This document shows positions 15,567-26,477 of a DNA stretch of 64,000 bases, piece after piece. The stretch comes from Opitutaceae bacterium (GTDB lineage: Bacteria; Verrucomicrobiota; Verrucomicrobiia; Opitutales; Opitutaceae): contig PLTZ01000024.1 of the NCBI GenBank assembly GCA_003164715.1, positions 57,582-121,581 on the forward strand, given 5' to 3'. The translations under genes and the position numbers were made by a program. A model generated the notes under the pieces. It searched no databases and had not been told where the DNA came from. It was given only the letters and a program-made list of their open reading frames with translations. Position 1 is the first letter of the stretch. Every line of letters starts with the position of its first letter.

Positions 15567-17159
15567 ATGACCGACACGACCCCATCCGGCCTCGAAATCC
15601 GCGCGCCGATCCCGCCCGAATACGCCGAGATCCTGACGCCGGGGGCGTGCGCGTTCATCGCCGGGCTCTTTCGGGAATTCGAGCCGAGGCGCCGGGCGCT
15701 GCTGCAGGCTCGGGCGGCCCGCCAGGCGGAGCTCGATGCGGGCGTGCTGCCGGACTTCCTGCCGTCGACGCTGTCGGTCCGCGAGGGTCTGTGGAAGGTG
15801 GCCCCCGCGCCGGCCGACCTCCTCGACCGGCGCACGGAGATCACCGGCCCCGTGGACCGCAAGATGGTCATCAACGCGCTCAACTCGGGGGCGAAGGTCT
15901 TCATGGCGGACTTCGAGGACGCGACGTCTCCGACCTGGGAGAACCTGCTCGACGGGCATGTCAACCTGCGGGACGCCGTCCGCCGCACGATCTCCTTCAC
16001 CAGCCCCGAGGGCAAGAGCTACAGGCTGAACGAGAGGACGGCCACGCTCCTGGTAAGGCCGCGCGGCTGGCACCTGCCCGAGAAGCACGTTCTCATGGGC
16101 GGCAGGCCGGTCTCCGGGAGCCTGTTCGACTTCGGGCTCTACTTCTGCCACAACGCCCGCGAGCTCCTCGCTCGGGGATCCGGGCCGTATTTCTACCTTC
16201 CGAAGATGGAGAGCCACCTGGAGGCGCGCCTGTGGAACGACGTGTTCATCCACGCGCAGGCGGCGCTCGGGATCCCGAGGGGCTCCATCCGCGCGACGGC
16301 GCTGATCGAGACCATCCTCGCCACCTTCGAGGCCGAGGAGATGCTCTACGAGATGCGCGAGCACGCGTCGGGGCTCAACTGCGGGCGGTGGGACTACATC
16401 TTCAGCTGCATCAAGAAGTTTCGCGCCCGGCCGGACTACCTGTTCCCCGACCGCAGCCAGGTGACCATGACGGCGCCCTTCATGCGGGCCTACTGCCTTC
16501 ACGTCATCAAGGTGTGCCACCGCAGGGGGGCGCACGCCATGGGCGGAATGGCGGCCCAGATCCCGATCAAGAACAACCCGGCCGCCAACGAGGAGGCGCT
16601 CTCCAAGGTCCTCGCCGACAAGGAGCGGGAGGCCACCGACGGGCACGACGGCACGTGGGTCGCCCATCCGGGCCTTGTCCCGGTAGCGCTCCAGGCGTTC
16701 GACAAGCACATGCCCGGACCCAACCAGGTCGCGCGCCAGAGGGAGGACGTGAACGTGACCGCCGCCGACCTGCTCGCGGCCCCGTCCGGAACCATCACCG
16801 ACGCGGGCATAAGGACGAACTTGAGCGTCGGCATCCAGTACCTCGAGGCCTGGTTCGGCGGCCTGGGGTGCGTCCCCCTCTACAACCTCATGGAGGACGC
16901 GGCGACCGCGGAGATCTCTCGCGCGCAGCTCTGGCAGTGGCTCCACTGCGGCGGAAGGCTGGCGGAGGGCAGGGCGATCACCACCGCTCACTACGAGATG
17001 CTCCTCGGAGAGGTCATCGCCAAGATCAAGTCGGAGGTGGGCGAGGAGCGCTACTCAAACGGGCATTTCAGGGTGGCCGCCCATCTCTTCATGGAGATGA
17101 TCAGGAACCCGCGGCTTGACGAGTTCCTGACGCTGCCGGCCTACGAGCTGCTCAAGTGA
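15567..17159 (+). CDS. aceB: Malate synthase A
   Basis: A 530-residue malate synthase of form A length. It contains [27 protein letters not shown] and the signature region [17 protein letters not shown]. It condenses glyoxylate with acetyl-CoA to malate in the cytoplasm. No isocitrate lyase lies nearby. The gene instead heads a tight run of purine and ureide genes, overlapping uraD by four bases, so its likely job here is to use the glyoxylate released from ureidoglycolate. It starts at ATG 15567 without a strong ribosome site. Confidence 0.95.
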
Positions 17160-17686
17160 GCGCCCCCATGCGGCCCACACTGGCCTCGCTGAATGCATGC
17201 GACTGCCGCGCGTTCGTCGCCGCCCTGGGCGCCCTTTTCGAGCACTCGCCCTGGGTGGCCGAGGAGACGTTTCCCAAGCGTCCGTTCCGCGACCTTGACG
17301 GGCTTTACGCCGCGCTCTGCGAGACCATGCGCGGGGCGGCGCCCGAACGCCAGATAGCCCTGGTCCAGGCCCACCCGGACCTGGCGGGCCGCGTTGCCCG
17401 GGCCGGCGAGCTGACCCCGGCCTCCGAAAGGGAGCAGTCCGCGGCGGGTCTCGACCGGCTGAGCGAGGCCGAGTCCCGGGAGATCGAGCGCCTCAACGAG
17501 GACTACAAGGCCCGGTTCGGCTTCCCGTTTGTCATCTGCGCCCGTCTGAACGCGAAGGAGGCGATCCTTGCGGCCATGCGCGCGCGGGCGGCCAACACCC
17601 GCGAAGCAGAGCTCTCGACGGCGCTCGGTGAAATCGCCAAGATAGCCCGGCTTCGACTCAACGAGGCCGTAAAAAAGGAGAACTGA
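17156..17686 (+). CDS. uraD: 2-oxo-4-hydroxy-4-carboxy-5-ureidoimidazoline (OHCU) decarboxylase
   Basis: A 176-residue all-helical protein with the OHCU decarboxylase landmarks: [22 protein letters not shown] (catalytic His), [20 protein letters not shown] and GFPFVICAR. It decarboxylates OHCU to S-allantoin. The GTG at 17156 overlaps the malate synthase stop as GTGA; an ATG four codons later is possible. uraH follows one base after its stop, so the two enzymes that finish urate oxidation are translated together. Confidence 0.94.
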
Positions 17687-25700: not shown

Positions 25701-26477
25701 GCGGCGTCGTCAGGCGCGGACCTGAACGGCGCCGCGGTCAGGAACGCCTGCGTGACGCTCCGCGAGCGGCTCCTGCCGGTGGCTTCGGAGCTCCTGTCGG
25801 AGAAGGCGGGCAGGAGGATTCCCGCGGCAAAGATACGATTCGTGGATGGAAAGGCGAAGGTACGCGGATCCACGCTGGCGATCGACCTGAAGAAGGTCTG
25901 CCACAGGGCCCATGCGCTCAGGATCAGCCTGTCCGTGTCGGGATTCTACGCCACGCCGGGCATCCACTGGGACTGGTCCACGGCCTCCGGACGGCCGTTC
26001 CAGTATTTTGTCTGCGGGGCGGCGGTCGCCGAGATCGAGGTCGACGGCCACAACGGCATGCACCGGATCCTCCGGGTCGACGCCGTCCACGACGTGGGTG
26101 ACTCGCTCAATCCCGGCGTCGACCTGGGCCAGATCGAGGGCGGCCTGATGCAGGGGATCGGCTGGCTCACCCGCGAGGAACTCCTGTGGGACAGGCAGGG
26201 GCGCCTCCTGACCCACAGCGCGAGCACCTACCAGATCCCCGCGATCAGCGACGCGCCGAAGGAGATCCACGTGACGACGCTGCCCATGGCGGCTCAGGAG
26301 GGGACCATCCACGGAAGCAAGGCCTCGGGAGAGCCCCCGTTCATGCTGGCGTTCTCAGTCAGGGAGGCGATCCGCGACGCGGTCGCGGCGTTCGGGTCCG
26401 GCGGCGGCGAGGTTCCGCTGGCGTCGCCGGCCACGAGCGAGGCCATCTTTACGGCGATCAGGAGTCGTTCTACTTAA
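22704..26477 (+). CDS. xdh: Xanthine dehydrogenase, single-chain (Fe-S, FAD and molybdopterin domains fused)
   Basis: One 1257-residue chain carries all XDH parts. Residues 1-165 hold two [2Fe-2S] centres (GCAEGDCGACTV and QCGYCTPGF ... CGNLCRCTGYRP). The FAD domain covers about 190-460 (ILVAGATEIG, RNRATLGGNLATASPIGD). The molybdenum domain runs from about 495 to the end: GGQEHFYLET at 657-666, MGGAFGGKE, FRGFGGPQG, GTEMGQGLH and the catalytic Glu1210 in GEPPFML. It oxidises hypoxanthine and xanthine to urate. Most bacterial enzymes are split into XdhA and XdhB, while the one-chain layout is usual in animals and plants. The ATG at 22704 gives the standard 2Fe-2S start. Its maturation protein XdhC is encoded on the other strand at 27636-28418. 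Confidence 0.95.
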   Translation: MGFEFTLNGRVVRVDDLAPTTTLLEFLRSSGLTGSKQGCAEGDCGACTVAIVDRDASGKATYRGVNSCIALLPMFAGREVVTVEGLSCEGAPLHPVQSAMVDHYGSQCGYCTPGFIMSLFEGYYRGDCRKAADISDQLCGNLCRCTGYRPIRDAALDAFGGRGKAAGAGDPFRERLKAPFSPPGGLDYRAGTDRFVRPTTLSGLFGALREHPRAILVAGATEIGIDVTKKFRPFPFLVSTEGVPELTRIVGTDSHWRIGAGATLTAVEEALAGEFPSLAKMLKVFAARQIRNRATLGGNLATASPIGDAAPVLLSLDAELVLASAGGSRTVALADFFTAYRKTLLGPGEIILEVALPRFEPGRGLVRRSDFFKVSKRRELDISIAAAAFSIDTDSAGVVRRARMAYGGIAATPVRARGAEAALEGRRLPEAAGEVARLLAGEFKPIDDVRGSAEYRRGLVVGLWEKFASGATSAAQDGALDFAKGQDAVAPDPSKALRHESAVGHVTGRALYADDTAQRRPMLDLWPVCSPHAHARVKRRDAAAARAMPGVVAVLMAEDIPGHNNVGTGQDEPLFADKEVRYHGQVVAVVVGHSPKACRAAAAAVVVEYEPLPALVGIGDAIARGSFHTPPHTLARGDAGAALAKAPLRLDGEFSFGGQEHFYLETQAAWAEAGEGGSVFVSSSTQHPSEIQAIVAELTGEPRSNVVVQSPRMGGAFGGKETQGAAFAAMVALAALKTRHPVRIQLDRDLDMMITGKRHPFHARFSVGYDGKGMILAAEVDLCSDGGWSLDLSQPVLDRALFHLDNAYYIPAVRFTGKIAKTNVASNTAFRGFGGPQGMLVMEEIVDRISRRLGLAPEVVRGRNLYRGRGRTNTTHFLQEIGDNRLQTVWKRVQKEAGFAARRRAVDAWNRAHPRVKRGLAVTPLKFGISFTLTHYNQAGALVLLHLDGTAQVNHGGTEMGQGLHTKILGVAMRELGLPASRIRMMQTATDKVPNTSATAASSGADLNGAAVRNACVTLRERLLPVASELLSEKAGRRIPAAKIRFVDGKAKVRGSTLAIDLKKVCHRAHALRISLSVSGFYATPGIHWDWSTASGRPFQYFVCGAAVAEIEVDGHNGMHRILRVDAVHDVGDSLNPGVDLGQIEGGLMQGIGWLTREELLWDRQGRLLTHSASTYQIPAISDAPKEIHVTTLPMAAQEGTIHGSKASGEPPFMLAFSVREAIRDAVAAFGSGGGEVPLASPATSEAIFTAIRSRST

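What the first reader, a model, noticed from the sequence alone, without database searches (positions are those of the whole stretch)
15567..26477. Ureide cluster with a complete four-hydrolase, plant-like route to glyoxylate
Eight genes run on one strand with overlaps or short gaps (largest 40 bases): malate synthase, uraD, uraH, an AllC-type enzyme, allantoinase, ureidoglycine aminohydrolase, a second M20 enzyme close to ureidoglycolate amidohydrolase, and xanthine dehydrogenase. In known pathways this set frees all four purine nitrogens as ammonia and CO2 and leaves glyoxylate, with no urea. Full sets of these four hydrolases are best known from plants and are patchy in bacteria. The coupled malate synthase suggests purines serve as carbon as well as nitrogen source.
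Basis: partly seen in the sequence, partly recalled or inferred. Interest (0 to 1): 0.7.

Follow-up and report, generated by a model that had tools for sequence, protein, structure and literature searches.

The report
Bacterial operon turning purines into malate
A bacterium related to the family Opitutaceae carries one operon that takes apart uric-acid products by the same four hydrolysis steps plants use, freeing nitrogen as ammonia and passing the leftover glyoxylate to a malate synthase; every enzyme is of a known kind, but the combination is an instructive variant.

Summary
Eight same-strand genes (15567-26477; 4-base overlaps or gaps of at most 40) encode malate synthase A, UraD, UraH, an M20 allantoate-type amidohydrolase, allantoinase, ureidoglycine aminohydrolase (UGlyAH), a second M20 enzyme and a single-chain xanthine dehydrogenase. 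The second M20 is almost certainly a ureidoglycolate amidohydrolase (UAH): 457 bits to the solved UAH (next kind 252), same clade with full support, seven residues found in 44-45 of 45 UAH rows and 0 of 31 AAH-type rows, and UGlyAH directly upstream of UAH in 39 of 43 loci from six phyla. The first M20 is probably allantoate amidohydrolase but not an AllC equivalog. The genome has a PuuD-type uricase elsewhere; no AllA, urease alpha subunit or isocitrate lyase was found, so its sole malate synthase most likely serves purine glyoxylate. Since that enzyme needs acetyl-CoA, growth on purines as sole carbon does not follow. Three relatives keep the operon without UAH: a natural experiment, though two of them have AllD-like dehydrogenases below cut-off. 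Bacterial UAH and purine-linked malate synthase (yeast DAL7) are on record. Verdict: real, a new variant of a known pathway, moderate interest.

The parts
14987..15529 (-). Guanine deaminase of the small CDA-fold (GuaD) type, divergent from the operon; the likelier ATG lies at 15457
   Evidence: Pfam PF00383; best solved matches are named guanine deaminase, 180 bits, against 121.5 for guanosine deaminase; upstream and divergent in the Opitutaceae loci that reach that far. No NCBIfam model over its cut-off.
15567..17159 (+). Malate synthase A, the only malate synthase match of the genome
   Evidence: TIGR01344 over cut-off; 600.7 bits to solved malate synthase A 3cuz; single PF01274 match in the genome.
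17156..17686 (+). UraD, OHCU decarboxylase (GTG start)
   Evidence: TIGR03164 over cut-off
17688..18041 (+). UraH, 5-hydroxyisourate hydrolase
   Evidence: TIGR02962 over cut-off
18050..19300 (+). M20 amidohydrolase, probable allantoate amidohydrolase (not an AllC equivalog)
   Evidence: NF006775 514.6 against cut-off 479; TIGR03176 AllC 247.3 against 597.75; clade of 18 rows, 100/99 (all 18 were sampled from UAH-bearing loci or the window)
19297..20658 (+). Allantoinase (AllB type)
   Evidence: TIGR03178 over cut-off; best solved matches are allantoinases, 366.7 bits
20699..21442 (+). (S)-ureidoglycine aminohydrolase, double cupin
   Evidence: TIGR03214 over cut-off; solved ureidoglycine aminohydrolase 4e2q 166.9 bits, with the E, H, H and Q of the second cupin kept in the printed alignment (that these bind the metal is recalled)
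21439..22698 (+). Ureidoglycolate amidohydrolase (M20)
   Evidence: Solved UAH 4pxe 456.8 bits, next kind 251.7, 52% identity over 416 positions; UAH clade 100/100 and 100/99; fingerprint residues
22704..26477 (+). Xanthine dehydrogenase, XdhA and XdhB domains fused in one 1257-aa chain
   Evidence: TIGR02963 and TIGR02965 both over cut-off on one open frame; top solved matches are about 1330-residue single-chain xanthine dehydrogenases/oxidases, further down two-chain XDHs
27636..28481 (-). XdhC, xanthine dehydrogenase accessory protein
   Evidence: PF02625 and PF13478; TIGR02964 176.1 against 161.6

Best explanation
This is one transcription unit for oxidative purine breakdown in an Opitutaceae bacterium. 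Guanine deaminase and single-chain XDH (matured by XdhC) make urate; a PuuD-type uricase encoded elsewhere oxidises it; UraH and UraD give (S)-allantoin; allantoinase, the first M20 (allantoate amidohydrolase), ureidoglycine aminohydrolase and the second M20 (ureidoglycolate amidohydrolase) hydrolyse it to glyoxylate, ammonia and CO2 without urea; malate synthase A condenses the glyoxylate with acetyl-CoA to malate. The main gain is nitrogen; the malate synthase removes glyoxylate and recovers two carbons while another substrate supplies acetyl-CoA. Shown here: gene order, family assignments, clade membership, residue fingerprint, neighbourhood conservation, a PuuD gene, and no AllA, urease alpha or isocitrate lyase found in a 98.79% complete assembly. 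Inferred: every substrate, co-transcription, and the physiological role.
For: Family cut-offs. UAH. UGlyAH ends within 300 bases upstream of UAH in 39 of 43 loci; three of the four misses have too little contig upstream. UraD and the first M20 match the two halves of one fusion family, NF010373 (128.1 and 348.8 bits, both below its whole-length cut-off of 1087), which links that M20 to the urate pathway. PuuD match 433.4 bits, with a CxxCH motif near the C-terminus of its frame. No PF01014 uricase, AllA or urease alpha match. The only PF00463 match is a methylisocitrate lyase (NF008455 447.6 against 353; isocitrate lyase models far below cut-off) beside a methylcitrate synthase. Of 57 genomes (own included), 14 have a malate synthase of 356 bits or more; in 13 it lies within a few kilobases of an AAH-type M20, and in none of those 13 was an isocitrate lyase found; two of the 13, G007 and G008, are only 64% and 80% complete.
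Against: No enzyme was assayed. The first M20 is outside the clade of AllC (1z2l) and fails TIGR03176, so its substrate rests on one family model and on context. Three relatives (G009, G029, G035) keep the operon but have no UAH, so UAH is dispensable there. In G010 the malate synthase of this locus is followed by a true isocitrate lyase (766.2 bits against 562). No transporter or regulator gene is within the operon. No sigma-70-like promoter was found.
Confidence: 0.85

Rival explanations
1. One or both M20 enzymes are N-carbamoyl-amino-acid hydrolases that happen to lie in the operon.
For: The closest solved structure to the first M20 is an N-carbamoyl-L-amino acid hydrolase (3n5f, 274.9 bits); AllC (1z2l) lies elsewhere in the tree.
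Against: The second M20 is nearer to solved UAH by about 205 bits than to any other kind. The first passes NF006775; none of the M20 rows taken from loci without a UAH fell in its clade, and UraD and it match the two parts of a fusion family.
Confidence: 0.08
2. The malate synthase belongs to an ordinary glyoxylate shunt and its place in the operon is accidental.
For: G010 has an isocitrate lyase next to the malate synthase of this same locus. G018 has a classical pair, whose malate synthase is 47% identical to the window's and does not pass TIGR01344 (527.4 against 594.5).
Against: No isocitrate lyase was found in the window's genome (98.79% complete) nor in 12 further genomes whose malate synthase lies beside the AAH-type M20. 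In the Chthoniobacterales loci L036 and L037 the gene lies after UAH, in another place of the cluster.
Confidence: 0.07
3. The operon mainly lets the cell live on purines as sole carbon source.
For: The glyoxylate made is fed to a malate-forming enzyme in the same operon.
Against: [quoted passage not shown] coli and P. aeruginosa use glyoxylate carboligase instead (PMC12694930, passages).
Confidence: 0.1

Closest known systems
Plant ureide pathway (allantoinase, AAH, UGLYAH, UAH)
   Same: Same four hydrolytic steps by family; UAH in one clade with the solved UAH and with its fingerprint; UGlyAH homologous. That 4pxe and 4e2q are from Arabidopsis is recalled.
   Different: Genes in one operon with UraD, UraH, XDH and malate synthase; no plant AAH sequence was available to compare with the first M20
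E. coli all genes (AllB, AllC, AllE, then AllD or AllA, and glyoxylate carboligase)
   Same: Allantoinase, AAH-type M20 and UGlyAH homologues
   Different: UAH in place of AllA or AllD; malate synthase in the cluster in place of the gcl branch; the AAH is not an AllC equivalog
Yeast DAL cluster with DAL7 malate synthase
   Same: Malate synthase clustered with allantoin genes and described as disposing of excess glyoxylate (PMC3646786, passage)
   Different: Yeast has allantoicase (same passage) and a urea-releasing ureidoglycolate lyase, DAL3 (PMC3793230, passages)
Nephromyces purine route with malate synthase but no isocitrate lyase
   Same: Glyoxylate from uric acid proposed to feed malate synthase without isocitrate lyase (PMC6320678, passages)
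   Different: Eukaryote, allantoicase route, no UAH orthologue found there; that paper already says that UAH is found in plants and bacteria
Cephaloticoccus (Opitutales) of turtle-ant guts
   Same: Same bacterial order, nitrogen-waste recycling
   Different: Those Opitutales have urease; urate breakdown to urea there is by Burkholderiales (PMC5840417, passages); no urease alpha was found in the window's genome

Membership tests
Ureidoglycolate amidohydrolase (UAH) | Nearest solved protein is a UAH, well above all other M20 kinds | tested here: met
   4pxe 456.8 bits, next kind 251.7
Ureidoglycolate amidohydrolase (UAH) | One clade with the solved UAH, apart from AAH-type enzymes and carbamoylases | tested here: met
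   32-row clade 100/100; 32-row clade 100/99 under the mixture model
Ureidoglycolate amidohydrolase (UAH) | UAH-specific residues (window A92, P136, T137, P222, L240, R365, Y367) and the shared H, D, E, H metal-site residues | tested here: met
   44-45 of 45 UAH rows against 0 of 31 AAH rows; H89, D91, D100, E134, E135, H199, H392 in 92-93 of 93 rows (their metal role is recalled, and the set was derived from these same rows)
Ureidoglycolate amidohydrolase (UAH) | Hydrolyses (S)-ureidoglycolate to glyoxylate, 2 NH3 and CO2 | not testable with these tools
   needs an assay
Allantoate amidohydrolase, AllC equivalog | TIGR03176 over its cut-off | tested here: not met
   247.3 against 597.75 bits; separate clade
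Allantoate amidohydrolase, NF006775 group | NF006775 over its cut-off | tested here: met
   514.6 against 479 bits
Allantoate amidohydrolase, NF006775 group | Activity on allantoate | not testable with these tools
   context only
(S)-ureidoglycine aminohydrolase | TIGR03214 over its cut-off | tested here: met
   287 against 200 bits
Malate synthase A | TIGR01344 over its cut-off | tested here: met
   800.5 against 594.5 bits
Glyoxylate shunt | Isocitrate lyase in the genome | tested here: not met
   sole PF00463 match is a methylisocitrate lyase; assembly 98.79% complete
Urea-releasing allantoin route | AllA ureidoglycolate lyase | tested here: not met
   no PF04115 match in the own genome, 0 of 57 genomes
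Urea-releasing allantoin route | Allantoicase | not tested
   not searched
Xanthine dehydrogenase | XdhA and XdhB models over cut-off, XdhC present | tested here: met
Glyoxylate carboligase (glycerate) route | Gcl in the genome | not tested

The most novel reading that the evidence does not exclude
The plant ureide hydrolases UAH and UGlyAH (and perhaps AAH) descend from a bacterial cluster of this kind, taken up as a block. The solved plant UAH falls in the bacterial UAH clade, in which UGlyAH is nearly always the next gene upstream, and the solved plant UGlyAH groups with the UGlyAHs of Acidobacteriota and Deinococcota clusters (99/96), not with the verrucomicrobial ones. The donor would then lie nearer the acidobacterial than the Opitutaceae side.
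Probability: 0.2. Interest if true: 0.75.

Novelty: new variant of a known kind. Interest (0 to 1): 0.42.

Why it matters
It makes a testable case that a bacterial malate synthase can be a purine gene and not half of a glyoxylate shunt. It gives a residue fingerprint that tells UAH from AAH-type paralogues, where the NCBIfam scan of the window's UAH listed no UAH model. The sister operons without UAH offer a natural experiment on what happens to ureidoglycolate. And the bacterial AAH-UGlyAH-UAH clusters are a comparison set for the published claim that the moss Physcomitrella patens acquired AAH and UAH from bacteria (Yue et al. 2012 as cited in PMC9667741, passage).

Tried and rejected
Nesting of plant UAH inside bacteria: under the LG+G4 model the plant row fell within a 31-row subset (97/89), but under the mixture model this is unresolved and a tree holding the bacterial UAHs together is not rejected (p-AU 0.149); I do not claim it. 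Guanine deaminase as part of a plant-like block: not supported, as the window protein is nearer to the solved guanine deaminases than to the guanosine deaminases (180 against 121.5 bits; that the latter is the plant enzyme is recalled). A replacement for UAH in the three UAH-less operons: none lies between UGlyAH and XDH; AllA found in 0 of 57 genomes; AllD over cut-off in 0 of 57. Against this, AllD-family matches below cut-off are strong in two of the three (G029 255.3, G035 207.4 bits; G009 112.6) and weak in 9 of the 10 UAH-bearing genomes (57-106 bits; G011 has 255.2); the G029 and G011 proteins have ureidoglycolate dehydrogenase as best NCBIfam model (263 and 262.2 against 356). So oxidation of ureidoglycolate in the UAH-less relatives is not excluded. 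UAH remnants there: none convincing (best 73 residues at E 0.026 in L089). Gain or loss of UAH: undecided (p-AU 0.209 and 0.189). An earlier concatenated tree wrongly used the UAH of L041 as its AAH; it was redone without it. Promoters: none found; terminator-like sites as many as in shuffles (6 against 6.1). No structure prediction was run, since a solved relative at 52% identity exists.

Rows dropped before counts: the AAH genes of L040 and L043 (stop in the extracted frame) and M20 pieces matching under 330 query residues; the rows of 14 near-duplicate loci in the M20 tree (95 to 69 rows), of 13 in the UAH tree (only 6 AAH or carbamoylase rows kept there) and of 14 in the UGlyAH tree. Loci under 50% identity or under 300 matched residues are not in the 43.

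Papers: PMC3793230, PMC9667741, PMC4016543, PMC12694930, PMC11131428, PMC11698098, PMC6320678, PMC3646786, PMC5840417 and PMC7759655 were seen as found passages only; others only as search listings. PMC4016543, PMC11131428 and PMC11698098 carry no claim here. Yue et al. 2012 was not held and is cited through PMC9667741.
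Full report
What was checked. The window lies at G000:C77:57582-121581 of a 3.79-Mb, 92-contig assembly, 98.79% complete. The closest named relatives of its UAH are in Opitutaceae metagenome assemblies. Seven of the eight pass curated NCBIfam cut-offs of the expected specific models; the second M20 passes only the general hydantoinase/carbamoylase model. The XDH passes both the XdhA and the XdhB model on one open frame of 1257 residues. On either side lie a divergent guanine-deaminase-type gene and XdhC. 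Organisms of solved chains are recalled throughout; the tables give molecule names only.

The second M20 is a UAH. Against solved structures it scores 456.8 bits with UAH 4pxe and 251.7 with the next kind; identity is 52% over 416 positions. In a 69-row M20 tree it sits in a 32-row clade, 100/100, that holds 4pxe and excludes the AAH-type clade, AllC 1z2l and carbamoylase 3n5f; the clade returns at 100/99 under a mixture model. Eighteen alignment columns are nearly fixed and different in UAH and AAH rows; seven of the sharpest (window A92, P136, T137, P222, L240, R365, Y367) are present in 44 or 45 of 45 UAH rows and in 0 of 31 AAH rows. The motif SRAYHD occurs in 43 of 45 UAH rows, where all 31 AAH rows have SGAGHD. 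Which of these residues touch the substrate was not determined.

The first M20 is probably the allantoate enzyme. It passes NF006775, an allantoate amidohydrolase equivalog model, but fails the AllC model by a wide margin, and AllC lies elsewhere in the tree. Its clade of 18 rows (100/99) holds the window and rows sampled from UAH-bearing loci, so its link to the pathway is partly built into the sample; but no M20 from loci without a UAH fell in it. NF010373, a family of fusions, matches UraD with its first part and this M20 with its second, both below its whole-length cut-off. No plant AAH sequence was within reach, so orthology to plant AAH is untested.

How widely the set occurs. One scan of genome contigs gave 64 loci. 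Of 43 loci with a UAH of at least 50% identity over at least 300 residues, UGlyAH ends within 300 bases upstream in 39; of the four misses, L038, L042 and L063 have too little contig upstream and L039 has room but no UGlyAH. AAH-type M20 within 5 kb: 32 of 43 (in L037 it is a divergent one); allantoinase within 8 kb: 32; malate synthase in the locus: 13; guanine deaminase: 22; XdhB: 21. Contig ends lower these counts. The 43 span Verrucomicrobiota, Acidobacteriota, Planctomycetota, Chloroflexota, Deinococcota and Sumerlaeota. UAH remains rare: a match at E <= 1e-90 in 11 of 387 sampled Verrucomicrobiota genomes, 8 of 198 genera, and an orthologue of 76% or more in 10 of 57 genomes around the window's own (own included; in G003 as two contig pieces).

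Uricase and urea. There is no PF01014 uricase, but a PuuD-type protein (PF06181, 433.4 bits) lies at G000:C26, with a CxxCH motif near the C-terminus of its frame. No AllA and no urease alpha subunit were found. Allantoicase was not searched.

The malate synthase. It is the only PF01274 match in the genome. The only PF00463 match is a methylisocitrate lyase beside a methylcitrate synthase, so no isocitrate lyase was found. Of 57 genomes (own included), 14 have a malate synthase of 356 bits or more; in 13 it lies within a few kilobases of an AAH-type M20 on the same contig, and none of the 13 shows an isocitrate lyase, though G007 and G008 are only 64% and 80% complete. In the 14th, G010, it lies between guanine deaminase and a true isocitrate lyase (766.2 bits against 562) at a contig end. 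True isocitrate lyases were found in 2 of 57, G010 and G018. The other malate synthase matches of the 57 (G018, G024, G040, fragments in G049, a second gene in G005) score 277 bits or less. In a tree the ureide-linked enzymes, with G010 and two Chthoniobacterales, form one group (99/96) against G018 and the E. coli enzyme 3cuz; the G018 enzyme, beside isocitrate lyase, is 47% identical to the window's (long branches there). L035 has the operon without malate synthase. The best reading is that this malate synthase serves purine glyoxylate. This matches yeast DAL7 (PMC3646786, passage) and the proposal for Nephromyces (PMC6320678, passages). [quoted passage not shown] aeruginosa uses glyoxylate carboligase (PMC12694930, passages). 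Whether this genome has that enzyme was not tested.

A natural experiment. G009, G029 and G035 (94, 97 and 95% complete) keep guanine deaminase, malate synthase, UraD, UraH, AAH, allantoinase, UGlyAH and XDH in the same order, but no UAH; in G009 the UGlyAH stop overlaps the XDH start. No UAH orthologue was found elsewhere in those genomes and AllA in none of the 57. No AllD passes its cut-off in any of the 57, but G029 and G035 have AllD-family matches of 255.3 and 207.4 bits, where 9 of the 10 UAH-bearing genomes have 57-106 (G011: 255.2); the G029 protein's best NCBIfam model is ureidoglycolate dehydrogenase, 263 against 356. G007 cannot be judged, as its contig ends in allantoinase. Their AAH keeps the AAH motif. 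Loss or gain of UAH is not resolved. Two accounts stand open: oxidation of ureidoglycolate by an AllD-like enzyme (G029, G035), or chemical decay to glyoxylate, which is on record (PMC6320678, passage).

Single-chain XDH. The joined frame is open in 18 of 21 loci examined: 15 of 15 Opitutaceae/Opitutae loci and three other Verrucomicrobiota (L041, L054, L063); L059 and L082 (Acidobacteriota) are split and L049 (Planctomycetota) has a stop in the joined frame. The three UAH-less relatives also have one frame of 1281-1299 codons. Fusion of cofactor domains in some bacterial enzymes of this family is on record (PMC7759655, passage), so this is a side note.

Relation to plants. Yue et al. 2012, as cited in PMC9667741 (passage), proposed that the moss Physcomitrella patens acquired guanine deaminase, AAH and UAH from bacteria. 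Here plant UAH falls in the bacterial UAH clade, but nesting is not significant; plant UGlyAH groups with acidobacterial and deinococcal UGlyAHs (99/96, on a long branch); guanine deaminase shows no plant link. A block transfer is open, not shown.

Verdict. Each enzyme is of a known family, and bacterial UAH is already on record (PMC6320678, passage). My paper searches listed no paper whose title or abstract start describes this operon; that is an open-licence library searched by words, so it does not prove novelty. I rate it a new variant of a known kind, interest 0.42.

Noticed in passing
L088 (G009), L089 (G029), L090 (G035): The same operon without the UAH gene and with no AllA in the genome; two of the three have AllD-like dehydrogenases below cut-off.
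   Followed up: partly
L091 (G010), 7242-10734: Divergent guanine deaminase, malate synthase (73% identical) and then a true isocitrate lyase near the contig end: the ureide-linked malate synthase beside a glyoxylate-shunt partner.
   Followed up: partly
window 22704-26477 and relatives: XdhA and XdhB fused in one chain in 15 of 15 Opitutaceae/Opitutae loci examined and in three further Verrucomicrobiota loci, split in two Acidobacteriota loci.
   Followed up: partly
window 50720-50800: Fluoride riboswitch match just above Rfam's gathering score (34.4 against 34 bits).
   Followed up: no
window 26874-27608: AbiEii-type nucleotidyltransferase gene (PF08843) between XDH and XdhC.
   Followed up: no
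window 44821-49359: 1512-residue frame with beta-propeller and immunoglobulin-like domain matches in a stretch of lower GC (0.57 for 44001-48000 against 0.67 overall).
   Followed up: no
L036 3346-4512 and L037 5444-6508: Chthoniobacterales clusters carry a very divergent further M20 gene upstream of UraD (branch 1.37); L037 shows no ordinary AAH nearby.
   Followed up: no
window 11160-12443: Imidazolonepropionase HutI (353.7 against 298.15 bits), a histidine-breakdown gene, near the purine operon.
   Followed up: no
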